The notes under the pieces: model-generated
Told to the model about the DNA's origin: nothing
What the model saw: the letters and a program-made list of their open reading frames with translations, nothing else
The model's database searches: none
DNA from: a virus
Strand: one strand, 5' to 3'
Length of the DNA: 24,659 nt
Virus record (IMG/VR): IMGVR_UViG_3300024999_000377
Coordinates: 1 to 24,659 of that record
Position numbers and translations under genes: made by a program
Part shown: positions 5,001-22,925 of the stretch, piece after piece
Layout of the letters: every line of letters starts with the position of its first letter
Numbering within the stretch: position 1 is the stretch's first letter

Positions 5001-6928
5001 GAAACAATTGCAACGTTAGCTTCAAAAACCTGTTGATCGGTATAATCAAGTTCGTTATCCTTTCTAATCTGAATAATTATGGTGTTTAATGCGGTTTTTG
5101 TTAATTCAACTTCCTTTAAATTGTTATTTACGATCTTCCCTTTATTGACGCTAATTCCGATTGGATAGGTAGCGGAAGATCTATCGAGCCACTCGTCGAT
5201 TGAGTCTAGGGTGTTGGTAATTGCGCTTTTATAACTATTTTCCGCCGATGTTAATCCTGATAAATCGGTTCCATCGATAATCAGTTTTAACTCATCGGAA
5301 ATCGCAATGACATCATCGGATTCCGTCTGAACGGCAACGAATAAAGTGTCTAATATGTTGGATTCGACTTCGGTAATTGATCCGTTCTTAATGTAGGTAT
5401 TCACTTGTGCCTGGAAGGCGCTTAGGGCAGTGTTCAGCTCCGTCACCTGATCCTCGACATATCGTTTTCCATCATCGAGCCTGGCTTTACCAATTGCATT
5501 CATGAGTAGAGACTTAGCCTTCTGTACATTCTTAAAAAGCTCACTAATAATGGACATTTCTCCTGGTAAAATCACAATCGGATAGTTAGGTTGGTCGATC
5601 CATTTACTCGTCAACTCAATGGTCAAGGTGGACAACGCGTCAGAATAATCGGCTTTTTCCGTAACGATTTCGAGTGTCTCCGCAAGATGTAAGACATCTT
5701 CGGATTCTGCCGTGAGTTGTGAAAGGTCAAGTTTCAAGGTCCTTGCCTCCGCTAACGAAATGTACCCGTCAGAAGAAAACTTATTTAAATCTTCGCTCAA
5801 TTCAAAAAGTTCCACGTCCAACTCCTGCACTTGTAGGTCCAGGTAATTCTTAGCCTTTACGAAATCTCGCTTTACCGTTTGAATGATGGAGGTAATGCTT
5901 GTGGCCATATTGGATTTGAAACTTCCTAATTCGATCTTTTCGAGCCTATTGGTTAGGCTATTTTTGGTTACCTTTATCACTTTAGCACTAAGATCAATGT
6001 TGAGTCTAGGATGTTTTACCGTAACTAAATCACCGAGAAGAACACTTTCTAAAATTGCATAATTCTTATATTCTTCTGTTTTTGATAACTCGATAAAATC
6101 AATTTTATAGTTAAATTGGGGCATATCGAGTTTAGAGGAAATCAGGTAATTGATGGCGACTGTTCTTAGTAGCTCAATCGCCATCGCCTCTGTAATTCCT
6201 AGTTCTTCATCCACCCCGATCTCGAAGAAATCCTCAGTTTTAATTCTTGGAAAAGGGTAGTTATTGATATATGGACTGTCAATATATTTCTCTGGAAGCA
6301 TTAAATTATCTTTACCGATTGCCATTAAGCGAGTACACATATCCTCTGTAGAGAGGGTTTCTTCGATCCCTTGAATATTCTTACCATAGCTAATTAGGAC
6401 GCCTCTATCAAGGCCTCTAGCCTCTAAGAGGGTGATTGTGAAGTTATCTCTAATCAGTTCTCCACCCCATGTAGCAATGATTCCTTCTGATCCCATGATC
6501 GCTTCGACAGGATTAACGAGGGTGAATGTCTTGCTCTTTATACCTCCGACATCGCTTGAGTTTGTAAAGTTGTGAGGGTATTGGGTATCATTCAAGACTT
6601 GATTAAGGGTCGAGGCCCCGGATAATTCCGTAGACTCAGAACTCTCAATTAGATTTCCAAGCAGATCGTAAAAAATATGACGAGCGTTAATTTTGATATC
6701 ACTTAGAGTCTTTACTTTTCTGTAGATCCTAAATAACTGCCCGTCGGCTTTAATGATGTTCTCTTCTAAGAGATATTGCCACTTCCCTCGCTCGTCAAGC
6801 GGGTAAGTCAATTCGAGCTCATACAGACCGTTAAGTTCTTCAGTTATAAGACAGGAAGTAGTCTCCGACAACACAACTAAACCGTTATTATCAAAGTTGG
6901 CACATTTGCTGTCGTACATATTAATCAT
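2033..6928 (-). CDS. Tail-associated protein (Tal / prophage endopeptidase tail family), multi-domain tail tip
   Basis: About 1630 residues. The first 345 or so match the N-terminal hub domain of siphophage Tal proteins (phage minor structural / prophage endopeptidase tail family), which closes the tail tube below Dit. The rest is modular (rough residue numbers from the TTG at 6943): helical repeats of one type at 389-490, 519-625, 657-765 and 1086-1188; an ILEI/FAM3-like domain at 772-930; a second helical repeat type at 935-1062 and 1357-1483; a beta-rich carbohydrate-binding-like domain at 1193-1352 ending in K-L-E-E-G-N-K-A-T-D-W; and an unrecognised beta-rich end from 1484. No clear peptidoglycan hydrolase motif is visible. 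I chose ATG at 6928 because it forms a TAATG overlap with the Dit stop and has GGCGGTGG 5 bases upstream; a TTG at 6943 would add 5 residues. The module borders are judged by eye. Confidence 0.88.
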   Translation of the reverse strand: MINMYDSKCANFDNNGLVVLSETTSCLITEELNGLYELELTYPLDERGKWQYLLEENIIKADGQLFRIYRKVKTLSDIKINARHIFYDLLGNLIESSESTELSGASTLNQVLNDTQYPHNFTNSSDVGGIKSKTFTLVNPVEAIMGSEGIIATWGGELIRDNFTITLLEARGLDRGVLISYGKNIQGIEETLSTEDMCTRLMAIGKDNLMLPEKYIDSPYINNYPFPRIKTEDFFEIGVDEELGITEAMAIELLRTVAINYLISSKLDMPQFNYKIDFIELSKTEEYKNYAILESVLLGDLVTVKHPRLNIDLSAKVIKVTKNSLTNRLEKIELGSFKSNMATSITSIIQTVKRDFVKAKNYLDLQVQELDVELFELSEDLNKFSSDGYISLAEARTLKLDLSQLTAESEDVLHLAETLEIVTEKADYSDALSTLTIELTSKWIDQPNYPIVILPGEMSIISELFKNVQKAKSLLMNAIGKARLDDGKRYVEDQVTELNTALSAFQAQVNTYIKNGSITEVESNILDTLFVAVQTESDDVIAISDELKLIIDGTDLSGLTSAENSYKSAITNTLDSIDEWLDRSSATYPIGISVNKGKIVNNNLKEVELTKTALNTIIIQIRKDNELDYTDQQVFEANVAIVSMQMDIATFAKGNLITYDESVSLKASFDKIIAESADVIEAANTLVVSATIINAYQNSLTGTIASCGTDGLEVELAKWVDLSLDSYPKRMKTTEKKALLGKFKAVMSTKVTLANSISLKTPEYSIDGELFVRGTGANRNASRALKINKKTISASSASGRGLMLTVISRDDLSIIFTQLYDTFLDDTGRDALATKLDTLDDSIIVVLTSYNSIGWNLNLLTSVIRCGGTGTDTGIGEFPYALVGIPGIYKGTALEVFSSSDNNAPYADISTKIVDGTPFGIAMGSSYLAAEAQLAADLAQEDADAMNKIITDIAQGGKFTSSEKKTVLKEWNIIIAEKDGILSQGTIYSTIDYPSIPSARVIYQTKYDTLDLYISPLLVNMKITSIIDSVEFQIKFKDYFDARQALLTTIATVAKTYIDDAVVGLSEAIDGLAVEINNALSDGLVTEKESKSLATDLSLVIAESNPLIDIATTLGLTNIKPNEKTDYQDALSDLGILLNTWVGKASTAYPIAITASQKLDVQAKFENVQSKKSTLLNKISSLQVDSVKIGGRNLVVNSIGLRGTFGWVGSPVPVVVDSKQALQVDNSTLVEKRAYTSIRFNLKPNTQYVLSVSVKGDGNSTTYDIFVLGRTSTGVSNYDIIIHSPYSELTTTFAKSTYVFTTPSVIVDGFVAIDNNATITNGVNCSVWFSEIKLEEGNKATDWTAAPEDIDVLINTAQQDADTANALLADIADDSKITPVEKKAVLRDWQIIDAEYSPLYNQGVNYDLTTDSNNYLAMHSDLYNYLYNIAPYNTYPVLLTNMDVTTSIDGEYFRGKFTSYYSAKMTLLNKLAANMTVKEIVVPLYYPDNTSYVSTSTYTHAKAVRLGSSTLDDIITGTITYSNVLSILKNWPEGTQFAFQAALSSSGSGDYAQVELIRIDQSLLDGGAGAVSILTWVSGNNTVQKTLRTDATSYFTNLNAGDLLGVAFKANTSGYTAKLYKAELIIIPKGV
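2495..4141 (-). repeat. Two ~127-residue helical modules (type B) in Tal
   Basis: Two related blocks at about 3758-4141 and 2495-2875. They share a D-A-D-A/T-x-N-x-(I/L)-(I/L)-x-D-I-A start, then K-(F/I)-T-x-x-E-K-K-x-V-L-(K/R)-(E/D)-W-x-I-I-x-A-E, and end with a (E)-(Y/F)-x-x-K-F-x-x-Y-(Y/F)-x-A helix. Modules of this kind are common in siphophage central tail fibre proteins and probably act as spacers. Confidence 0.75.
3380..5779 (-). repeat. Four degenerate ~105-residue helical modules (type A) in Tal
   Basis: Four protein-level repeats lie at about 5474-5779, 5069-5389, 4649-4975 and 3380-3688. Each starts with a G-x-I/L-(S/T)-x-x-E-(A/S) segment, continues with a helix containing A/T-E-S-(x)-D/P-(V/L), and closes with W-(I/V/L)-D/G...(T/S)YP followed by a helix of the type F-x-x-V-x-x-K-x-x-L-x-N. 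They are interrupted by the ILEI-like domain and one type B module. Divergence is high, so they are old duplications and not DNA-level repeats. Confidence 0.7.
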
Positions 6929-10600: not shown

Positions 10601-13157
10601 GCGCGTTCCGGTCAATATCACCGAAACTCTTAACGGCGATAGCTAATACGTTTATAGCAGCCGCGAATATTAGGATACCAACCGATCTTATAACGCCCAT
10701 TCCGCTAAGATTTGACGCTTTCATAAATAAGGCTAATTCGGTCATTAATATACCGATACCAATAAGCCCTTTAGTTAATTTGTCTTGGTTGATGACACTT
10801 AGTCTCTCTACGGCAGAAACAAGAATTCGTATCGCTGCCCCAAGCAGAATGAATCCTAATGAGGCCCGTATTAGACTTCCGGAGCTAGTATCTAATAGTT
10901 TAGCTGATAACAATAATACGCCAGCTATACCAATGACTCCGGTTAGTCCTACCGATAAGCTATTCCAATCTAATTTAGCTAATCTGGTTAGCGCTACCGA
11001 TAGAATAAGAACCGCTGTGGATAAACCAATCATCGCAATTGTGGTTTTCGTCATTGTCAAGAAACCCAATCCACCTGAAAATCTTTCAAATAATGTCATG
11101 GCCCCGAAAAGCTCAACGAACATTGTGGTTAATGCGGCGAGAGAAACTGTAAGTTTTACCGAATCAATCGACGCTATAGCAATGAGTGAAACTGCCAATA
11201 TACCAATTGCGAATGCTATTTTGAGTAGAACACCGGCTTTCAATGATGATTGATATGAGGATAGACTCGCTTTAACTCCATCTAAGACGCCTGTGATCCC
11301 ACTGAAAATACCGCCACCGCTGCTAACTACACCCCCAAGGTTGAATATAAATTTTGATATGCCTGCCAGTATGACAGTGAATAAACCGGTGTTTAATGTA
11401 TCAAAGATCGCGTTGAAATCTGCAGTGTTAAATGCGTTGAGTATGCTATTCCTTATTCTATCAAGTGCTCCTCCTATAATACTAGCAAGTTTGTAGAACG
11501 TTGGAGCTACATTTTTTATACCCTCGAGTATACCTGAGAATGCCCTATCGGCGAGATCTCCGAGTTTCGTAAGGGGTTCGAATCTCGACTTGAGTTTTTC
11601 TGAGAAGGAATCAAGACCGGACGTATCCATTGAGCCAATGGCTCCAAACATTGCCGCTATACCACCTGTGGATATCTTAATACTATCGGCAATTGGTTTC
11701 AGAATTTTACCGATCTTTTCGATAGCTGAATTAAATGAGTCTGACGACTTTATGACAGTATTAAGCCTTACAAAGAAATCACCGATATTTCCAGTGAAAG
11801 AAAGAAGTCCACTACTAGCCGGGGAGATGTATTTTATTATTGAGGCTAGCCCGTTCGCGGTCGCAAATAAGGCCTGTTTGCCAATATCAAGAATGGCGAA
11901 TAAACCCTGGAACGAGCGTCTGAGATTAACGTTGGTTTCTGCTCCTATTTTGAAGTTCGTTGTAAGATCTCTAAACCGCTTAGTGATTTCAATTAATCTC
12001 TCGCCTGTAATGGCCGGAAAGATCTCTCTAAAAGCTTCGCCGATTGGTTTAAGAATACCGCCGAGACCCTTTAAGGCATTAGTGACACCCTCTATTAGAG
12101 CATCCCGTCCACCGTTCTGATTCCAGAATTTTAACATCTCGTTTCTGGCTTCAGTTGCCGGTCCAATAATCTCTCCGAATGCGTTGTTAAGCTTGGTTAA
12201 CATCTCAGCCGATTGACCTTTATCGCCAATAATGTTTTCCCAAGTTTGAGCCCAACCGGATTGAACCGATTCTTTCATGGTATCTAGCAATTGCGTGAAA
12301 GTTTTAACTTGTGTCGCGGCCTTTACTAATGATTCGTCGTCAGCGAATTTAGCCAACGTTTTTGTTAATACGGCGGTGGTTATCCATCCATCTTGTAATG
12401 AATCTCTGAATGATACGGCCATGTTTCGACCGTTTCCAAGTTCCTTAGCGGTCTTCTCCAAGGCTTTCTGAAATAGCTCACCGCCCATGCCCGCGTTAAC
12501 AACGGAATTCCAATCCATTAGAGATACTTTTCCTGCCGCCAAGGCTTGAGATAACTGATACATTGCAGTAGACGCTTGTTCAGAAGTTGAACCCGACCCA
12601 GCCGCAAGGTTAGCGATGCCTTTAATTGCTATGGCTGACTCTTTAAGTCCAACACCTGCGGCGGTGAATGTACCTATGTTCTTAGCCATCTCTGCAAAGT
12701 TATAAATGGTTTTGTCCGAATACTCGTTTAATTCATTTAATGCTTCGTTGATATCCTCTAAGGATGATCCTTTACTAGCCGTGTTAGTAAGAATTGTCTG
12801 AATTGCTCCCATTTTGGTTTCGTATTCCGTTAACCCCATTTTAATAGGGTCAATTGTAAGAGCCATAATGATTCGCTTACCAGAATTTACAGCACTGTCT
12901 GCGAGATTGGTAAGGGCGGTATCACCAATAATTCCGAGATTTGAAAACCTATCGGATATAAGCTCGATGTTTTCGGCTATACCTGCGAGGGAGAAACTTT
13001 TTCCAACTCGATCTAATTTGGATAAACTTCTTGTCGCTCCGTCTAAATCAAGACCGCTCTTAAGATTCTTAAGAGATTCAACACTGGTTCGAATCCCGTT
13101 CTCGAATTGTTGATTATATAACTTAAGTTCAACAACTCGTTCGTCGACGTTTGGCAT
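7614..13157 (-). CDS. Tail tape measure protein
   Basis: At 1847 residues this is the longest gene here; it sets tail length and is thought to be ejected ahead of the DNA. Residues about 95-310 resemble the tape measure N-terminal domain, with E-T-K-M-G-A-I-Q-T, N-E-Y-S-D-K-T-I-Y-N-F and D-W-N-S-V-V-N-A-G-M landmarks. Residues 590-1300 are very hydrophobic, with many potential membrane segments and a tandem array of ~60-residue units. Residues 1360-1620 are charged and coiled-coil-like. Two copies of an S-P-S-K-x-F-A-E-I-G motif sit at about 1312 and 1681. No lysozyme or peptidase domain is obvious. With the rule of about 0.15 nm per residue the tail would be roughly 270 nm if uncleaved. The start is ATG at 13157, overlapping the previous stop (TAATG), with GGGAGGAGG upstream. 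Confidence 0.95.
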   Translation of the reverse strand: MPNVDERVVELKLYNQQFENGIRTSVESLKNLKSGLDLDGATRSLSKLDRVGKSFSLAGIAENIELISDRFSNLGIIGDTALTNLADSAVNSGKRIIMALTIDPIKMGLTEYETKMGAIQTILTNTASKGSSLEDINEALNELNEYSDKTIYNFAEMAKNIGTFTAAGVGLKESAIAIKGIANLAAGSGSTSEQASTAMYQLSQALAAGKVSLMDWNSVVNAGMGGELFQKALEKTAKELGNGRNMAVSFRDSLQDGWITTAVLTKTLAKFADDESLVKAATQVKTFTQLLDTMKESVQSGWAQTWENIIGDKGQSAEMLTKLNNAFGEIIGPATEARNEMLKFWNQNGGRDALIEGVTNALKGLGGILKPIGEAFREIFPAITGERLIEITKRFRDLTTNFKIGAETNVNLRRSFQGLFAILDIGKQALFATANGLASIIKYISPASSGLLSFTGNIGDFFVRLNTVIKSSDSFNSAIEKIGKILKPIADSIKISTGGIAAMFGAIGSMDTSGLDSFSEKLKSRFEPLTKLGDLADRAFSGILEGIKNVAPTFYKLASIIGGALDRIRNSILNAFNTADFNAIFDTLNTGLFTVILAGISKFIFNLGGVVSSGGGIFSGITGVLDGVKASLSSYQSSLKAGVLLKIAFAIGILAVSLIAIASIDSVKLTVSLAALTTMFVELFGAMTLFERFSGGLGFLTMTKTTIAMIGLSTAVLILSVALTRLAKLDWNSLSVGLTGVIGIAGVLLLSAKLLDTSSGSLIRASLGFILLGAAIRILVSAVERLSVINQDKLTKGLIGIGILMTELALFMKASNLSGMGVIRSVGILIFAAAINVLAIAVKSFGDIDRNALIKGLTSMGIVIAEVTIFANATRNVKNVFSTAIALTVLGAAMLIFGKAISNMGDMSWEEIARGLTVLGSALAMIAITFIALPKNIFIQSLAFMDMASAILMLSKALGIMSKMSWPEVQRSLVALGGSMAIIVSSFALMKNKMLDATALMILVGAIMGLAVALKMLGAMSLVEIGVSLLAMAGAFGIIGLAGLLLAPLTPAIMALALAIGLLGAGCLAAGLGVSLLAAGLAALAVSGAAGAVALVAILSSIVGLIPALLKALAQGVIDFVKVIGEGAPIVADAFIAIALSIVAALTTVIPMVVEALVKLLTTVLKVLADNIPQMIEAGMKLILGFLKGIKDHIKEITETAIDVILQFISGIMSKISEIVDAAFKVIIGFINGLAEAIKNNHDALYSAVGNLITAIVVAIIDLMPKIIEVGGDIIRGFVKGFAKMATVLVDAAVGIVGDAVQGVKDFLGIHSPSKVFAEIGQYSAEGLAKGIKQNTPKAVKESKAMAKAVADASKAEFDKSVKWIDDKKYYKQLSLSEELTAWENLQKKYVEGTEERDKADREAYRVKQELIEKQRTAEEEYYTKSKEISEKLKQDIQSVNDEYNQALASRSDTLYRTYGLFDEIRDEDSASGTELINNLETQVAAFDEWQKNITELAKKGISDGLLKELQDMGPTALGKIKALNQLIKPELDKYANLWEEKHDQAKEAAVNELEGMRIESDNKITDLNNQSDVSLIELFDVYQTRLSEITANTQVQLEDFNSKWETKTQELNTQTNKDFGKIVTDIQNTFKEPDWAGVGKNIIDGIINGVRNQAIMLSNATADAAKQALNAAKETLGIQSPSKEFAEIGKYSMVGFAGGLRQFANLAVKEVGNVGIIAKESLRDAVSNIVNIVSGNLELVPTIRPVLDLTNVVKGLRSTFAKSQVINVDGIRSKTESISSMDTNRRIGSDLSVNKPSVKSVSGGYQGGGLAVTITNFVNNRTQDVQAFAEELEFYRNQIVTGRGGN
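8055..9236 (-). repeat. Duplicated S-P-S-K motif segments flanking the tape measure coiled coil
   Basis: Two 25-residue segments at 9162-9236 and 8055-8129 share L-G-I-(H/Q)-S-P-S-K-x-F-A-E-I-G-(Q/K)-Y-S followed by a Gly-rich helix. They bracket about 340 residues of charged helical sequence. The motif is common in the C-terminal parts of tape measure proteins of Gram-positive phages; its role is unknown to me. Confidence 0.75.
10050..11170 (-). repeat. Seven tandem ~60-residue hydrophobic units in the tape measure protein
   Basis: Units begin near residues 664, 729, 789, 848, 907, 964 and 1020, at spacings of 56-65 residues. Each opens with a short loop and helix such as MSWEEIARGLTVLG, MSWPEVQRSLVALG, IDRNALIKGLTSMG or INQDKLTKGLIGIG, then two hydrophobic helices. 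The hydrophobic stretch fits the portion of tape measure proteins predicted to interact with the host membrane. Confidence 0.75.
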
Positions 13158-16421: not shown

Positions 16422-18074
16422 TTAACCAGCAGCGGCCTCTACAAACTCTAGCGCAATTGCAGCGTAAGGTTTGATTAGTGCTCCGGAACAACGAGTTTCA
16501 ATAAGATACTTCTGAGCATTATAATCAATGTCGAAATCGTCAAACATATTGACCGCTCCACCTTTATCGGCGCCAACATTGTAGTCGGTTAAGTTAACAA
16601 TGATTCCGGCAAGAGTATACGTTTTAGTGTCGGCTCCGACTCTAGTTTGACCCTCCATCACGGGGGCTGTGATAATCTCCTTAACCCGGAGAGCCGTGGC
16701 TAATTTATCAACAGAGTCATAAATCACCCGACCTGTTGTGTCCTCCATTAACAGGCAGTCGGTAAGGATATCCTCGGTGGCGTATAGGATTGGTGACCCC
16801 GAGCCTTTATAGTTTTTTCTAGATTTAACGGCTGCGCGGATGAACGCTTTTGCTTTTTGATCTGCGGTGGCATTAGCGGCATGCTCAACGGGGGTTTTAA
16901 TTGTATACAAATCCGCATCTGTCCAAATTGGTCGGATGTTTTGCTCATTGATCTTATCGTCGGAGGAATTTAGACGTCCATCTCCAACGAGAACTGCGCG
17001 AGCAAGTTCTTCATCAAGCATTGTTCTCATTTCGGACTTCAACCACGCAACGACATCAAAATCTGTGATATCCACGATATCGTCACGATCAAGTTTCTGT
17101 TTTTTATAAATAGTGGTTGGACTGGTAGTTCTCTTCAATAAAGAGAAAACCTCTTCAATTTTCAGATTACCCTTGACGTAACCTTTAGCCCGAGCGTCGG
17201 CCTCGGTGATATCGGCTAAGATTGATTTGATACGTGAGAAAGGCGTATTGTGTACAGCAGTCATTACTTTTCGTACCCAGCCCATATCCCGCTGGATGAA
17301 TTGTGGATCGTTCATTACGTTTTGTGCGTCTGGGAATAAATAATCAATGTTCTCGATACCGTGCGCTAGAACAGCGTCTCTCAGGCTTCCATACCGTTTG
17401 GCGTCAGCAATGATGCCCACCATATCAACGTGGCTAAGAGTGTCCTTTTTATCCTCTTTGTCAAATACATTTTGTTTCATTTCTTCATTTCCCCCTTCTA
17501 AATTTTCACCGAGAGCCTGTCCAAGCATAGCATATACTACGGTTTTCTGTTTCTCGGAAAGAGTATCAAATACATCGGCTATAGTTTCTTCATCATCGGT
17601 TTTATCGGTCTCATCGGCATGGAACAATGATAGCTTTTCACCCGTATAGATGAATGCTTCTTCGTCAGATTCTTCGCCATGACTCATGACAGAATCGATA
17701 AATGCTCCAGGATTTGCTCCGGCGAGCACTAAACTCACTTCGCGAATCGCCCCATGTAAAACACTACCGCCCTGTTGTTTAAGTTGATTGGCATATATAG
17801 ATAACGCCGAGACATCGCCATGTTGAACCAGAAGTTTTACATTCCTTCCTACTTCTGTATCGTTGAAAGTGCAATATGCATAAACACCCTCTTTACGATT
17901 TTCCAGCAACGCGTGCCCCAATACATTATGCGGATCGTTGTGTTGATGATTCCACACCATGGGGACCACTTGTCCATCATTATGTTTAAACGCATCTTTC
18001 AGAATGGTTCTTCCATCGGAACATTTAAGATTATTACGAGTGGCCCATCCACTAAAATCATAACTCTTTTCCAT
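16422..18074 (-). CDS. Prohead protease - major capsid protein fusion (HK97 type)
   Basis: 550 residues joining two proteins usually encoded separately. Residues 1-130 are a prohead serine protease: the likely catalytic His is in W-N-H-Q-H (42-45), the likely Ser in G-D-V-S-A-L-S (86-92), and E-V-S-L-V-L-A-G-A-N-P-G (112-123) is the usual closing motif. Residues 130-200 are an acidic, helical linker suited to a scaffold (delta-like) role. From about 199 on it is an HK97-fold capsid protein, with I-D-Y-L-F-P-D-A at 243-250, the S-R-I-K-S segment near 280, and Y-K-K-Q-K-L-D-R-D-D and D-I-T-D-F-D-V-V-A-W-L-K landmarks. Maturation would cut the N-terminal part away; the site is not visible. The start is ATG at 18074 with AAAGGAGA upstream. 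An in-frame ATG at 17480 could also make unfused capsid protein. Confidence 0.92.
   Translation of the reverse strand: MEKSYDFSGWATRNNLKCSDGRTILKDAFKHNDGQVVPMVWNHQHNDPHNVLGHALLENRKEGVYAYCTFNDTEVGRNVKLLVQHGDVSALSIYANQLKQQGGSVLHGAIREVSLVLAGANPGAFIDSVMSHGEESDEEAFIYTGEKLSLFHADETDKTDDEETIADVFDTLSEKQKTVVYAMLGQALGENLEGGNEEMKQNVFDKEDKKDTLSHVDMVGIIADAKRYGSLRDAVLAHGIENIDYLFPDAQNVMNDPQFIQRDMGWVRKVMTAVHNTPFSRIKSILADITEADARAKGYVKGNLKIEEVFSLLKRTTSPTTIYKKQKLDRDDIVDITDFDVVAWLKSEMRTMLDEELARAVLVGDGRLNSSDDKINEQNIRPIWTDADLYTIKTPVEHAANATADQKAKAFIRAAVKSRKNYKGSGSPILYATEDILTDCLLMEDTTGRVIYDSVDKLATALRVKEIITAPVMEGQTRVGADTKTYTLAGIIVNLTDYNVGADKGGAVNMFDDFDIDYNAQKYLIETRCSGALIKPYAAIALEFVEAAAG
17478..17499 (-). promoter_or_regulatory. 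Possible internal ribosome binding site and start for free major capsid protein
   Basis: Inside the fusion gene, AGAAGGGGG (17499-17491 on the minus strand) precedes an in-frame ATG at 17480 by 10 bases. This would start a 352-residue protein, M-K-Q-N-V-F-D onward, which looks like the N-terminus of stand-alone capsid proteins of related phages. The signal is clear in sequence; its use is an inference. Confidence 0.45.
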
Positions 18075-18089
18075 TTCATTCTCTCCTTT

Positions 18090-19298
18090 TTAATTTGTAG
18101 TTATCGGTTGTGCATTCTGATTATTTATATTTTTGTTAATCAGCGCATCCGATTTTGGGTCATCTGATGGTTTATAACCAATTATGGCCCGGACTTCATT
18201 GGATGAAAGTATCTCATTCCTAGTAAATTTATCAGCACTCTCGGCCAAGTCATTTATAGGCATAAGTCTAAATGGATCTCTAAAGAACGCTATCGATTGC
18301 TTTTGGGTTCGCGCTGTCTTTGTGAGAAATTTTCTTTTCATCTCATCAACAACTGCTGAGATAATAGGTTCAATGGTCCGATTATAATAGTTAAGCATCG
18401 TCTTCGCGTCGGCAGTCCCATCTAATATACTCTGAGTGAATCCTAACTGGCTATATAGCATACTCGTTAGGAATTCAATCTGACTCATTAGATTGTTCTC
18501 GACAGGGCGATTCAATTGAGTGATACGCTCTGTCCCATCAGTGTAAGCGATGCCATATTTAGAACCGGCCAATTGATTCTCTATATCCGTACGCCGAGTT
18601 TCGGCCTGTTGACGCCTCGCTTCTGTCTTAATGACATATGGTAATTGAATAATTAAATCCAATTTTCCAGACCCACTCTGGTTATCTATTGAATCTAATA
18701 AATTCAGTTTAGAAACCAATCGTTTTAGTGTTGAATTTGGTTCGTTGATAACAGCATATAGGGGATTCTCAACAATCGCCACTGTACTTTTAGGGACTGT
18801 AATATCCTCTTTCAACCCAGTTTTCTCGTTATAGACTCGGACTCGGACACTCTTTGGGAACCACTCTAAAATCTTACCAGTTCGCATCGAATTGATATCG
18901 TATGAGCCGGTTATCTTTGGGTCAAAAGTGGTATCCGTTGGAACAATAGCCACACACCCCTCATCAAGCATGGACATGACCACATCCTGCATAAAGGCCC
19001 GTCCTGTCTGATCGATATTGGATGAGGTTGTTAAACATTCATTTAATCCAGAGTCCACAACCGATACAAATCTATCATTTTGATCTAATCTGACGTGGTT
19101 GACAGCGATGGCCGATGCGTCTAATGTTATACGATTATAAATCGAAGTTACAATAGACTGTTCGTTACCTCTGGTTAGTCGAGCCCTATCTGGTCTATGT
19201 GAATACCCCACGCCATCGTCCCTGTAGTATTTATACGGGTCCTTGTTGAAGAAAACATCCCAGGCATGCTTTAATCTAGAACCAAATGTTTCATACAT
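18090..19298 (-). CDS. Portal protein (HK97 family)
   Basis: A 402-residue portal protein, the dodecameric ring through which the terminase packages DNA. The length and patterns fit the HK97-type portal family: S-I-Y-N-R-I-T-L-D-A-S-A near residues 52-63, W-F-P-K-S-V-R-V near 146, a long central helix (residues 225-250), Y-S-Q-L-G-F-T-Q-S-I-L-D-G-T-A near 285-299, and E-I-L-S-S-N-E-V-R-A-I-I-G-Y-K-P-S-D-D-P near 362-381. The start is ATG at 19298 with a perfect AAGGAGGTG site, the strongest in the area. The protease-capsid fusion follows after 15 bases. Confidence 0.92.
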   Translation of the reverse strand: MYETFGSRLKHAWDVFFNKDPYKYYRDDGVGYSHRPDRARLTRGNEQSIVTSIYNRITLDASAIAVNHVRLDQNDRFVSVVDSGLNECLTTSSNIDQTGRAFMQDVVMSMLDEGCVAIVPTDTTFDPKITGSYDINSMRTGKILEWFPKSVRVRVYNEKTGLKEDITVPKSTVAIVENPLYAVINEPNSTLKRLVSKLNLLDSIDNQSGSGKLDLIIQLPYVIKTEARRQQAETRRTDIENQLAGSKYGIAYTDGTERITQLNRPVENNLMSQIEFLTSMLYSQLGFTQSILDGTADAKTMLNYYNRTIEPIISAVVDEMKRKFLTKTARTQKQSIAFFRDPFRLMPINDLAESADKFTRNEILSSNEVRAIIGYKPSDDPKSDALINKNINNQNAQPITTN

Positions 19299-19351: not shown

Positions 19352-19454
19352 TTACTTTTTAGATGCATAATCGTAATATTTCTTACCAGCAAGAGTCCCT
19401 TTTCCCCCAATGCATACCTAAGATGCCGTAGTGTTGTAGTTGATTATGGTTCAT
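19352..19454 (-). pseudogene. Frameshifted mini-gene with H-x-G-x-x-G-M-x-W-G motif
   Basis: In the 173-base gap before the portal, ATG 19454 opens a reading frame that ends after only 23 codons (TAA 19385-19383) with residues H-Y-G-I-L-G-M-H-W-G-K-R then D-S-C-W. Removing one G from the GGG at 19397-19399 gives a 34-residue product continuing T-L-A-G-K-K-Y-Y-D-Y-A-S-K-K to a TAA at 19352. The matching stretch at 22864-22895 has GG there and stays in frame, so the extra base looks like a frameshift mutation or a sequence error. G-M-x-W-G followed by an A-G-K-(K/R)-Y stretch is a familiar pairing in small phage proteins of unknown role. The ribosome site is weak (GAAAG, 11 bases upstream). Confidence 0.6.
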
Positions 19455-19471
19455 TTTGAATTGATACTTTC

Positions 19472-20458
19472 TTAATAAGCAGAACCAAGAGAAATACGTC
19501 TCCAATTTTTACCGGAAGTTGCATTTGCGGCTACACATTTATAAAGATAGGTATCGTCAATCATCATAGTATTTATAACTCCTACTGTACCGTCGATACC
19601 CCCTGATAACACAACGGCCCCTCCAGTAAATGCCCCGTTAGCCATCGTTTCGCCAATAACAATCGCATTACCAATAACCCCAGCGACATCTGCTGTAATA
19701 TCCACGCTGTCTCCTGCACCATCGGCGGCTCCAACTCCTTGTGTATCAGATGTAGTGATGGATGCTACGAGTGCAGTAACTGCATTTGCGGCCGTACAAT
19801 CTGCGCCGGATGTTAATGTTGCGCCAGCAAAAATGTTTGTTCCTGCCGCGAATGTCTCGGTTGTAGCAATAATGTCACCAGAGACGCCTCCAATTAAAGC
19901 TGTAATTATACAATCATCTACTACGAAATTAGCAGCAGAAACTAGGTTGTGTGACTCGTTAATTCCATCCACGCCATTGATCGCAGCTACAATCGCCAAT
20001 TTCGAGGTAGCTAAATCAGTTTCAATTGAAATTTCACCATCAGCGGTATTTGTTCCAACGGGAACGAAGGTGTACACTTTTGTTCCGATAGTCATGGTAT
20101 CGCCGCTCGTTGGTTGGACGGCGATGGTTAATACCCCGGATGGCTTTATGGTGTTAGCTGCGATGTTAACCGCGATATTCGTTGGTGCGGTTTTTGTTTG
20201 CGCAGTATCTGTTAGAAATTCATACACATCAGTTCCTGTGGCGGCTGGATTATTAATAGTCACAGTTTCCCCATGAATTACGACACCTGATATCGCCAGG
20301 TTTTCTGCGGCGTTTACAGCGTTTACGGCCGTACCCGAAACTACCACGTTATTAACAGCGTCAATGATTGATTTGATTTTTTCCCCTAACGTCATTCTTT
20401 GGGTATTGGTATTTATGTTGTTTAAATGCGCCACTTCCATGCTGGTTAAGTTGTTCAT
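19472..20458 (-). CDS. Repeat-built decoration- or fibre-like virion protein
   Basis: 328 residues, rich in Ala, Thr, Gly and Val, with few charges after the N-terminus. Residues 1-37 are a helical, polar head. Residues 107-219 and 221-290 hold related beta units: T-A-L-I-G-G-V-S-G-D-I-I-A-T-T-E-T-F near 186 resembles T-A-D-V-A-G-V-I-G-N-A-I-V-I-G-E-T-M near 255. A shorter copy (50-83) pairs with 107-132 through V-T-I...D-V-Y-E-F and M-T-I...K-V-Y-T-F. The end, G-K-N-W-R-R-I-S-L-G-S-A-Y, is a motif seen in other phage surface proteins. Its place between terminase and portal suggests a head-surface protein, but this is inference. The start is ATG at 20458 with AAAGGAGC upstream. Confidence 0.6.
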   Translation of the reverse strand: MNNLTSMEVAHLNNINTNTQRMTLGEKIKSIIDAVNNVVVSGTAVNAVNAAENLAISGVVIHGETVTINNPAATGTDVYEFLTDTAQTKTAPTNIAVNIAANTIKPSGVLTIAVQPTSGDTMTIGTKVYTFVPVGTNTADGEISIETDLATSKLAIVAAINGVDGINESHNLVSAANFVVDDCIITALIGGVSGDIIATTETFAAGTNIFAGATLTSGADCTAANAVTALVASITTSDTQGVGAADGAGDSVDITADVAGVIGNAIVIGETMANGAFTGGAVVLSGGIDGTVGVINTMMIDDTYLYKCVAANATSGKNWRRISLGSAY

Positions 20459-20478: not shown

Positions 20479-20763
20479 TTAAAATAATTCATATGTCTTT
20501 TCGAATATATCTGGTTTACATGGGTAGAACTCGCCACTTACGCCTCTAATGATAAAGTCTCCCTTAGAAGCTGTCATATCCCCCTCCAATGTAGGAATGA
20601 TAATTGTATACGCCTCTTTTGGTATGTCTCTATCTAGTTCCATACTCCTGGGCGGGCAAGATACCTTTAGGTTTTTTCCAACAAATAATTTAATCTCTGT
20701 TACGTTATCTCCGCCCCATTGTATCGCCTCAATTACGACAGGTTTCTTTCTATAAAAAGCCAT
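20479..20763 (-). CDS. Conserved small phage protein (Y-R-K-K-P-V-V-I-E-A-I-Q-W type)
   Basis: 94 residues with an N-terminal Y-R-K-K-P-V-V-I-E-A-I-Q-W motif, a central I-P-T-L-E-G-D-M-T-A-S-K-G-D-F-I-I-R-G-V block and an end of E-F-Y-P-C-K-P-D-I-F-E-K-T-Y-E. This family is widespread in phages and prophages, including outside structural clusters; I know no proven function. It is predicted to be a small soluble beta-rich domain with no membrane segment. The start is ATG at 20763 with a weak ribosome site, 30 bases after the large terminase stop. Confidence 0.75.
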   Translation of the reverse strand: MAFYRKKPVVIEAIQWGGDNVTEIKLFVGKNLKVSCPPRSMELDRDIPKEAYTIIIPTLEGDMTASKGDFIIRGVSGEFYPCKPDIFEKTYELF

Positions 20764-20793: not shown

Positions 20794-22539
20794 CTACTCA
20801 AAAGCTTCTTTATTTGCTTTATACGCTATATATGCGTCCATAAGTGCAGAAACGCTGTCGATCTTTTGCTCGTAACGCTTCTTTAATAATTTGCGATTAC
20901 CATTTGTATCCTCGAGCGTTATACTGTTGCCCATAGCAAACGACATAAGCACTTGATCGAATATTAATATGCGCTCTTCGGCCATAATTTTAAGTTCGCC
21001 CAATGGTACCGATTCAGTTTTAACGCCTTGTATTACCTTTTCAATTCCGTAAGGCCCGTTTTCATTCTCCCACCTTGTTACGAACTCTTTTGCATTATAT
21101 GGGTCGAAACCAAAACAACGCACATCGTAACTTTGATCTAGAATATACTTATCGAGATCGTCATACACTTCCATCATATCGAGAACTGTGCCCTCGAGGA
21201 CCATTAAACTACCTTCGTCTAAAAACTCGTTATATTTAATTCGCATGGCACCTGGTAGTTTCATAAGAGTTAACGATGTAATATAACATCTTGTCTTTAC
21301 ACCAAAGGTCCCATTCGATAATGGGAATAAAAATGTAAATGCGCAGAAGTCGTCACCTTGAGATAGGTCCCCGCCCAACGCGCATGGTAAAGACCAGAAA
21401 TTACGATTACGATGTGGTAATGTTTCTTCGTACGTGAAGAAGTATGTGTAGCCTTCCATTGGAATGCCAAATCTTTTTGCTAGAATATCATTTCTAGAAG
21501 CCGGAGCTTTCTCGGCTCTATCGACGTCTAATTGATAGGTCTCGTAAGTTACGGTTTTTCCAATATTAGGATTTGCCTTTAACCAAGTCGACGGATCATT
21601 GATTTCCTTAACGTCGTCTAACTTGTACCACCAAATAGAAACGTGAGGATTTATGTAATCCCCTTTTAGAATGTCTAACAATTCCATTTTGATTGTGTCC
21701 CCACTACCGTTTCGAACGGTTCCTTCGGAACTCGTAGCGATGATTAGATAGTCATCAAGTTTAGAAGCTCCTTGTTCGATTGCACCAACGACGTCTTCAC
21801 GAATATCACCAGAAAGCCACTCGTCAACGGTTGAGACTTTAGGTCTTAAACCTTGAAGTTTATCAATGCTCATAGGTCGAACTTCTATAACGGAACCAGT
21901 TAAAAAATTTTCAATACCTTTTTTTGTAGACGCAAGCTTCATGCGGTTAGCTCGTGAGCCAGTTGTATTTTGCAAAGAGCCCTCGGTTAAAAATTGGAAT
22001 AGAGGCCCTCTTGAGCGAATAATAGCAGTGCGAATTGGAGACATCACTTCGTCTGCTTGTTTCATTGTTGGCGCGGTAGTAATTTGATGGGTTGTTGTAG
22101 TATCCACATTATGAAAATAAGATTGAATGCAGGAGTCATATAGTGATTTAGCTGCCCCCCTACCCACTATCAAATACTGTTTATTTATCAAACGTTTCTT
22201 AATCGTCTTACGGATATATTTACCGCCATGATTATCCGGCGATGGTTTATAGATACTCCTCTCAACAAAATAGTACCACCCAAATATTTGCTCCGCCCAT
22301 AATTTAAATGAATCCAGTAACACTAAGTCTGCTCCATCTGTAAGGGTAAGTTCTTTCTCACAGTATTCGACGAAACCATCAACAGCTTTATCATCGTAAT
22401 ACATACCATGATTTTCTATGAGGGCATCGATCCGATTCATTTCCATGGAAATTTCCTTATTAACTGGCATCTCACCTTTTATCACAGAGTCACGAAACTG
22501 TTTATAGTATTTAGGTGTTGCTGTGTTTGATAATGTCAT
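20794..22539 (-). CDS. terL: Terminase large subunit
   Basis: A 581-residue packaging motor of the Terminase_1 type. The ATPase has a Walker A-like G-R-G-A-A-K-S at 126-132, a T-x-A-P-T coupling-type segment near 154-158, and Walker B V-S-T-V-D-E-W with the Asp-Glu pair at 239-240. The RNase H-like nuclease shows a candidate first Asp in G-G-D-L-S-Q-G-D-D (391), a middle acid in F-G-F-D-P (479) and a last Asp in K-I-D-S-V-S-A-L-M-D (561 or 568). Length and motif order are complete. The start is ATG at 22539 with AAGGTG upstream. The neighbouring HNH gene and small terminase candidate suggest a cos-type packaging machine. Confidence 0.95.
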   Translation of the reverse strand: MTLSNTATPKYYKQFRDSVIKGEMPVNKEISMEMNRIDALIENHGMYYDDKAVDGFVEYCEKELTLTDGADLVLLDSFKLWAEQIFGWYYFVERSIYKPSPDNHGGKYIRKTIKKRLINKQYLIVGRGAAKSLYDSCIQSYFHNVDTTTTHQITTAPTMKQADEVMSPIRTAIIRSRGPLFQFLTEGSLQNTTGSRANRMKLASTKKGIENFLTGSVIEVRPMSIDKLQGLRPKVSTVDEWLSGDIREDVVGAIEQGASKLDDYLIIATSSEGTVRNGSGDTIKMELLDILKGDYINPHVSIWWYKLDDVKEINDPSTWLKANPNIGKTVTYETYQLDVDRAEKAPASRNDILAKRFGIPMEGYTYFFTYEETLPHRNRNFWSLPCALGGDLSQGDDFCAFTFLFPLSNGTFGVKTRCYITSLTLMKLPGAMRIKYNEFLDEGSLMVLEGTVLDMMEVYDDLDKYILDQSYDVRCFGFDPYNAKEFVTRWENENGPYGIEKVIQGVKTESVPLGELKIMAEERILIFDQVLMSFAMGNSITLEDTNGNRKLLKKRYEQKIDSVSALMDAYIAYKANKEAFE

Positions 22540-22547
22540 AACGCACC

Positions 22548-22925
22548 TTATTTCATGTGGGTCTTTACAGCTTTAGCAAGGTCTTGGACTAGGGGGGTTT
22601 TAGAAAGGGCATAAAGCCCAGCAATCGTTGTTCCGGCAGCAGTTACTTTTTTAACATGGTTTAAGCCTTTTGTAACCTTACTCGGTTTGAGATCTCTAAA
22701 TTGTTTTTCAAGTTGAAGACGATTAGTAAACTCTCTTAATTGTTCATTACTCATTTCGTGTACTTTTTTACTCATAAGATTAGTTTTTTTAATATGATCT
22801 TCGCTTGATTTAAGAAGTACTTTATTTCCACGTGGACCGATAAGAGAAGGCTTAGCTGATTTTGTCCTTTTCCCCCAACGCATACCTAAGACGCCGACAT
22901 GATTTAAAAATTCTTGATTATACAT
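22548..22925 (-). CDS. Small basic protein with N-terminal H-x-G-x-x-G-M-x-W-G motif
   Basis: 125 residues, strongly basic. H-V-G-V-L-G-M-R-W-G-K-R lies at residues 9-20. Motifs of this shape recur in many phage head-region proteins, usually near a terminus, with no role I can cite. Residues 50-80 carry M-S-K-K-V-H-E-M-S-N-E-Q-L-R-E-F, a helix also common in such proteins, and about 90-110 is a small hydrophobic stretch (A-A-G-T-T-I-A-G-L-Y-A-L) that could be a weak membrane helix. The start is ATG at 22925 with AAAGGAG; the upstream gene stops 1 base before. Directly ahead of terL, it may be a packaging or head-assembly accessory. Confidence 0.65.
   Translation of the reverse strand: MYNQEFLNHVGVLGMRWGKRTKSAKPSLIGPRGNKVLLKSSEDHIKKTNLMSKKVHEMSNEQLREFTNRLQLEKQFRDLKPSKVTKGLNHVKKVTAAGTTIAGLYALSKTPLVQDLAKAVKTHMK

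What the first reader, a model, noticed from the sequence alone, without database searches (positions are those of the whole stretch)
19352..19454. A G-M-x-W-G mini-gene broken by one extra G just before the portal gene
The minus strand reads a 23-codon frame with H-Y-G-I-L-G-M-H-W-G-K-R and then stops. The near-identical stretch in the gene at 22548-22925 has one G fewer at the same spot. Deleting the extra G here gives a clean 34-residue peptide ending T-L-A-G-K-K-Y-Y-D-Y-A-S-K-K. A second tiny carrier of this motif beside the portal suggests the motif itself is a portable signal, perhaps a head-targeting or packaging tag. The frameshift could be decay, a sequencing error in a GGGGGAAAAGGG run, or regulated slippage.
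Basis: partly seen in the sequence, partly recalled or inferred. Interest (0 to 1): 0.62.

Follow-up and report, generated by a model that had tools for sequence, protein, structure and literature searches.

The report
Deletion-scarred remnant of tagged phage genes
The tiny broken gene beside the phage portal gene is a leftover made when a deletion joined the start and end of normally full-length genes; the short tag it still carries marks many phage proteins encoded beside the portal, and may load them into the virus head.

Summary
The minus-strand frame 19454-19383 reads MNHNQLQHYGILGMHWGKRDSCW* and carries a true Pfam DUF7211 motif (PF23847, 32.9 bits; cut-off 27). In the closest relatives the slot between the upstream 328-aa gene and the portal holds full-length DUF7211 genes: A, or A plus B. 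The window keeps the 5' context and tag of A and the 3' end of B: TLAGKKYYDYASKK* matches ...IIGGRKYYDYATNK*. The last 48 nt match gene B's end at 36/48, the best of 9,108 ORF ends (next 28). The extra G sits on the junction of a deletion of about 0.9 kb (or 0.2 kb if only B existed), so the frame break needs no slippage or sequencing error.

The portable-tag idea is supported. Tags head 61/86 genes between terminase and portal, against 1/395 downstream (replicate: 55/89 and 0/457). They precede unrelated domains, and some sit inside the portal C-terminus. A two-tag protein of phage 1706 is annotated structural. Loading into the head is inferred.

In passing: eight AT-rich relatives break the tag at the same point, TGG-C-GG, with a cargo frame continuing in +1: a candidate programmed frameshift at an avoided codon.

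The parts
19352..19454 (-). Remnant: 5' end of a DUF7211 gene (A-like context) joined to the 3' end of DUF7211 gene B
   Evidence: upstream gene and spacer as before gene A in L003-L007; last 48 nt 36/48 identical to the stop-aligned end of gene B in L003/L004
19383..19454 (-). 23-codon frame MNHNQLQHYGILGMHWGKRDSCW*
   Evidence: Pfam DUF7211 32.9 bits (on the extended ORF 19383-19505)
19405..19433 (-). HxGxxGMxWG tag (DUF7211 core)
   Evidence: 2 matches in window, 0 expected
19397..19400 (-). Deletion junction, the 'extra G' in AAAAGGGACT
   Evidence: best breakpoint after 54-57 nt of 103; the two ends of gene B in L007 share AGGGGC 209 nt apart
19352..19399 (-). Orphan C-terminus GTLAGKKYYDYASKK* of gene B
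19472..20458 (-). Conserved 328-aa gene, 5' syntenic anchor (77-81% aa identity in L003-L007)
18090..19298 (-). Portal protein, 3' syntenic anchor
   Evidence: Pfam Phage_portal 2.8e-16
22548..22925 (-). Intact 125-aa DUF7211 gene upstream of TerL
   Evidence: Pfam DUF7211 29 bits; syntenic genes in relatives
20794..22539 (-). Large terminase (TerL)
   Evidence: Pfam TerL nuclease 2.8e-32
16422..18074 (-). Prohead protease-capsid fusion
   Evidence: Pfam Peptidase_S78 8.4e-8; PHROG 3270 head maturation protease 7.9e-213

Best explanation
The feature is a deletion remnant (pseudogene) of DUF7211-tagged genes in the TerL-portal interval of a siphovirus-type phage whose closest cellular matches are mostly prophages of Clostridia. 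An ancestor had tagged gene A followed by tagged gene B, as L003, L004 and L007 still do. A deletion of about 0.9 kb, or a smaller one if only B was present, joined the tag end of one to the last 15 codons of the other, probably across a short AGGG repeat. Because the lost length is not a multiple of three, the two ends are in different frames. What remains makes at most a 23-residue peptide with an intact tag and no cargo (loss of function is inferred). The tag itself most likely works as a short docking signal that brings diverse cargo proteins to the portal or prohead so that they are packaged; that step is inferred from gene position, portal fusions, cargo variety and the 'structural protein' annotation of a tagged protein in phage 1706. 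Confidence 0.88 is for the deletion-remnant part; about 0.5 for the head-loading role of the tag.
For: Shown: (1) the 5' flank matches the 328-aa gene plus spacer ...TTCAAAATG found before gene A in L003-L007. (2) The 3' end matches the stop-aligned end of gene B at 36/48 nt, best of 9,108 ORF ends, next 28; protein IIGGRKYYDYATNK versus TLAGKKYYDYASKK. (3) The best breakpoint is nt 54-57, at the 'extra G'; joining the L007 AGGGGC repeats on paper gives the same anatomy and frame as the window. (4) Tag distribution: TerL-portal genes 61/86 and 55/89 tagged; downstream of portal 1/395 and 0/457; all 196 and 148 hits on the portal strand. In the eight complete named phages all copies above the cut-off lie in the packaging region. 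(5) Every gene from gp015 to gp021 in ReqiPepy6 is tagged, as are 9-11 in Esketit and 14-16 in Tanis. (6) Portal C-terminal fusions in L015, L016, L017, L021, L023, with at least two different trailing domains. (7) Cargo domains: papain-fold Gln_amidase, 2H phosphoesterase, GNAT acetyltransferase. (8) Phage 1706 gp07, annotated structural protein, has two tags.
Against: No near-identical intact sibling of the window was found; the closest portals are about 82% identical, so the exact deletion size (206-895 nt) and whether A was lost in the same event are not fixed. Gene B's N-terminus in L007 matches the window tag slightly better than A's (44 versus 40 of 57 nt). Raw reads are unavailable, so a chimeric assembly is not excluded. 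Head loading has no direct test here; 1706 gp07 rests on a GenBank annotation whose source paper was not held. 25 of 86 TerL-portal genes lack the tag, and so do two in the window.
Confidence: 0.88

Rival explanations
1. A real mini-gene of about 34 residues carrying just the tag, expressed through a +1 shift at AGG-G (regulated slippage), acting as a competitor or helper peptide.
For: The tag and the tail are both preserved in sequence; AGG-GAC could allow +1 re-pairing (inference). Eight relatives show a recurrent +1 break elsewhere in the tag, and L003/L004 hold another short tag-only frame.
Against: The tail is the C-terminus of a gene over 100 aa. The window break is three codons away from the recurrent TGG-C-GG site and lies in a phage that uses CGG normally (21 in 6,924 codons). 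No relative with the same peptide was found.
Confidence: 0.05
2. Assembly chimera or sequencing error in the metagenomic contig: the phage really has intact genes here.
For: Metagenomic record, no reads available; the junction lies in a GGGGGAAAAGGG run next to repeated tag sequence that could mislead assembly.
Against: A base-calling error cannot remove 200-900 nt. Flanking genes are continuous and in syntenic order. Other tagged genes in relatives are also broken or truncated, so decay in this slot is not unusual.
Confidence: 0.1
3. For the tag: it is not a targeting signal but a recombination-prone leader or an assembly or protease site with no role in packaging cargo.
For: The tag is short and predicted disordered (pLDDT about 50). 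The same tag precedes many unrelated cargos, as a recombination joint would.
Against: The residues, not only the DNA, are conserved across phages of Clostridia, Lactococcus and Actinobacteria, and some copies are internal to the portal or to an enzyme.
Confidence: 0.3

Closest known systems
Pfam PF23847 (DUF7211)
   Same: The window remnant (32.9 bits) and the 22548-22925 protein (29 bits) are members above the curated cut-off
   Different: Pfam gives no function; the remnant has lost its cargo part
MuF polymorphic toxins of temperate phages / SPP1 gp7 (PMC5576092)
   Same: Variable effector-like C-terminal domains on proteins encoded next to the portal; SPP1 gp7 binds the portal and is in the capsid
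   Different: MuF genes lie downstream of the portal, have a folded MuF domain and are usually single; DUF7211 is a short motif on 1-9 genes mostly upstream, and MuF was absent in 20 of 20 DUF7211 phages
T4 capsid targeting sequence of internal proteins
   Same: Short N-terminal peptide on several unrelated proteins that are loaded into the prohead (own knowledge; reviews listed)
   Different: No sequence relation tested; DUF7211 can be internal or in the portal; cleavage by the prohead protease untested
Programmed +1 frameshifting at a poorly read codon (Ty3-type, own knowledge)
   Same: Eight relatives resume frame after a single C at TGG-C-GG with CGG nearly absent as a sense codon
   Different: The window itself lacks this site

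Membership tests
DUF7211 (PF23847) | 25-residue profile with HxGxxGMxWG core above gathering score | tested here: met
   32.9 bits for window:19383-19505, cut-off 27; 29 bits for 22548-22925
Intact DUF7211 cargo gene | Tag followed in frame by a cargo domain | tested here: not met
   Stop after 23 codons; only the last 15 codons of gene B remain, in another frame
DUF7211 as a prohead/portal loading tag | Genes confined to the packaging module | tested here: met
   61/86 and 55/89 TerL-portal genes versus 1/395 and 0/457 downstream of the portal; named phages. A few metagenomic records (e.g. G004, G005) also hold copies elsewhere
DUF7211 as a prohead/portal loading tag | Tagged protein found in virions | tested here: inconclusive
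   1706 gp07 is annotated 'structural protein' in GenBank and has two tags; source paper not held
MuF family | MuF domain (PF04233 or PF06152) | tested here: not met
   No match in 20 DUF7211 phages
T4-type capsid targeting sequence | Removal by prohead protease after loading | not testable with these tools
   No proteomic data at hand
Programmed frameshift gene (window locus) | Shift site conserved with an open downstream frame in relatives | tested here: not met
   The downstream frame is 15 codons from another gene's end; site not found in relatives

The most novel reading that the evidence does not exclude
DUF7211 is a general loading signal for phage-carried effector proteins (an upstream-of-portal counterpart of MuF). 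In relatives that avoid the CGG codon, tag-to-cargo translation is gated by a programmed +1 frameshift at a CGG placed exactly between the tag's Trp and Gly (TGG-C-GGN), so that cargo is made only at a low or controlled level.
Probability: 0.35. Interest if true: 0.82.

Novelty: new member of a known kind. Interest (0 to 1): 0.5.

Why it matters
The remnant itself is ordinary, but it points to an unexplained tag shared by phages of Clostridia, Lactococcus and Actinobacteria. If the tag loads effectors into phage heads, every tagged gene becomes a candidate for a protein injected with the DNA, including counter-defence enzymes, and the tag could be used to place chosen proteins inside phage particles. 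The recurrent TGG-C-GG break would be an unusual case of translation control at an avoided sense codon.

Tried and rejected
Exact DNA copies of the window site in IMG/VR: none. Similar DNA in annotated phages over the 311-nt site: chance matches only. Motif strings and DUF7211 in the literature: nothing relevant. PDB by sequence: none for the 125-aa protein. AlphaFold of the 125-aa protein: tag disordered, mean pLDDT 64; Foldseek against PDB gave no match. AlphaFold of the natural portal-tag fusion L015: the tag segment (within 385-460) has pLDDT below 50, so no docking site can be read. Plasmids: no match. Pseudomonas phage 8P hit (E 7) was judged chance: it lies in a 4-kb gene well away from the portal. 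A/G/T versions of the TGG-C-GG site: only L207, a G-run difference; the Gln version of the tag with C: none. Host tRNA check for a CGG reader: incomplete, not conclusive. A scan of all codons for +1 switches in the eight contigs is too noisy to rank CGG by count alone.

Full report
1. The observation. The minus strand at 19454-19383 reads MNHNQLQHYGILGMHWGKRDSCW*. The motif pattern HxGxxGMxWG occurs twice in the window and never in shuffled copies. Both copies are real members of Pfam DUF7211 (PF23847): 32.9 bits for the small frame and 29 bits for the 125-aa protein at 22548-22925, with a cut-off of 27.

2. What it is. 80 relatives of the portal gene were fetched. In the nearest five (L003-L007; portal 79-82% identical) the window's 328-aa gene at 19472-20458 is present at 77-81% identity and is followed, after the same short spacer ending TTCAAAATG, by a DUF7211 gene called A here (about 200-230 aa). 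In L003, L004 and L007 a second DUF7211 gene, B (102-107 aa), lies between A and the portal. B ends ...GIIGGRKYYDYATNK* in L004 and ...GAIAGKTYYNHVTN* in L007. The window's other frame ends GTLAGKKYYDYASKK*, and its last 48 nt match the stop-aligned end of B in L003/L004 at 36 of 48 positions. Against 9,108 stop-aligned ORF ends the next best is 28. So the window holds the start of a tagged gene joined to the end of gene B.

3. The junction. The net loss is 895 nt if A and B were both present (as in L004 and L007) or 206-221 nt if only B was. Which of the two applies is open: the 5' spacer favours A, while the tag letters slightly favour B. A single-base error cannot explain it, and slippage is not needed.

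4. The tag. Counting genes in 62 distinct loci, 61 of 86 genes between TerL and portal carry the tag, 76 of 270 upstream of TerL, and 1 of 395 downstream of the portal. 72 loci from bacterial genomes give 55/89, 72/295 and 0/457. All hits are on the portal strand. Whole-record searches show the same clustering in cultured phages of Rhodococcus, Gordonia, Streptomyces, Arthrobacter, Lactococcus and Faecalibacterium. Tags go with unrelated domains: Gln_amidase (5 of 94 proteins), GNAT acetyltransferase, and a 2H phosphoesterase upstream of an internal tag. In L015, L016, L017, L021 and L023 the tag lies in the portal's own C-terminal extension, with at least two different trailing domains. Lactococcus phage 1706 gp07, next to TerL and annotated structural protein, has two tags. 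AlphaFold leaves the tag disordered, consistent with a docking peptide. The inferred mechanism is recruitment of cargo to the portal or prohead. SPP1 gp7 (MuF), reported to bind the portal and to be present in the capsid, is the closest working parallel (PMC5576092); MuF domains are absent from 20 of 20 tagged phages.

5. Decay elsewhere and a lateral lead. Other broken or truncated tags lie in the same interval: L003/L004 and, among genome loci, L169, L171, L172, L178 and L192. L004, L169 and L178 break in or near runs of eight or nine A. L171 and L172 break at ATGAAATGG-C-GG, with the cargo continuing in the +1 frame. A scan of IMG/VR for that site found nine contigs; six (L199-L203, L206) show the same +1 continuation with different cargos, while three read the site in frame. 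The +1 contigs hold 1 CGG in about 15,000 sense codons; the three in-frame contigs use CGG. A search for +1 switches at CGG finds the tag site in each contig with enough upstream sequence and almost nothing else. Between L199 and L200 the cargo differs at 10, 8 and 28 first, second and third positions of the +1 frame, so that frame looks to be under selection. Low-GC Firmicutes without any standard CGG-reading tRNA are documented (PMC8629427). This is a candidate programmed +1 frameshift; internal initiation is not excluded, low GC alone lowers CGG use, and L172 and L201 are the same phage.

6. Verdict. The given locus is an ordinary deletion remnant. The exact site of function, and any packaging, remain to be tested.

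Noticed in passing
L171:4073, L172:4579, L199:605, L200:6017, L201:4733, L202:5101, L203 near 50, L206:1317: Recurrent +1 frame break inside the DUF7211 tag at ATGAAATGG-C-GGN, in contigs that almost never use CGG; the cargo frame continues in +1 for 67-168 codons (some cut by the contig end). Candidate programmed frameshift.
   Followed up: partly
L004:3527-3945 (also L003): Tag gene after TerL broken at a run of eight A; the other frame carries on with a KADAKW..KI stretch as in intact genes. L169 and L178 break at runs of nine A. Transcript slippage, phase variation or decay.
   Followed up: partly
L015:5992-7623, L016:4579-6219, L021:5215-6894, L023:5983-7641, L194:4947-6626: Portal proteins with a DUF7211 tag and exchangeable C-terminal domains of at least two kinds.
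   Followed up: partly
L013:1489-2283, L028:2162-3250, L061:968-1792, L076:1644-2462: DUF7211 proteins with a papain-fold glutamine deamidase-like domain (Gln_amidase).
   Followed up: no
L083 gp013 (10681-12276) and L086 gp12 (5240-6805): Tag following a 2H phosphoesterase (2_5_RNA_ligase2) domain in gp013; gp12 is annotated RNA ligase/phosphoesterase and also carries a tag. Possibly a packaged counter-defence enzyme.
   Followed up: no
window 20479-20763: 94-aa gene matching PHROGs 419, 1810 and 4159 (the last named nucleotide pyrophosphohydrolase), untagged, in the TerL-portal interval.
   Followed up: no
window 19472-20458: 328-aa conserved protein of unknown role between TerL and portal, anchoring the slot in close relatives; no Pfam match.
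   Followed up: no
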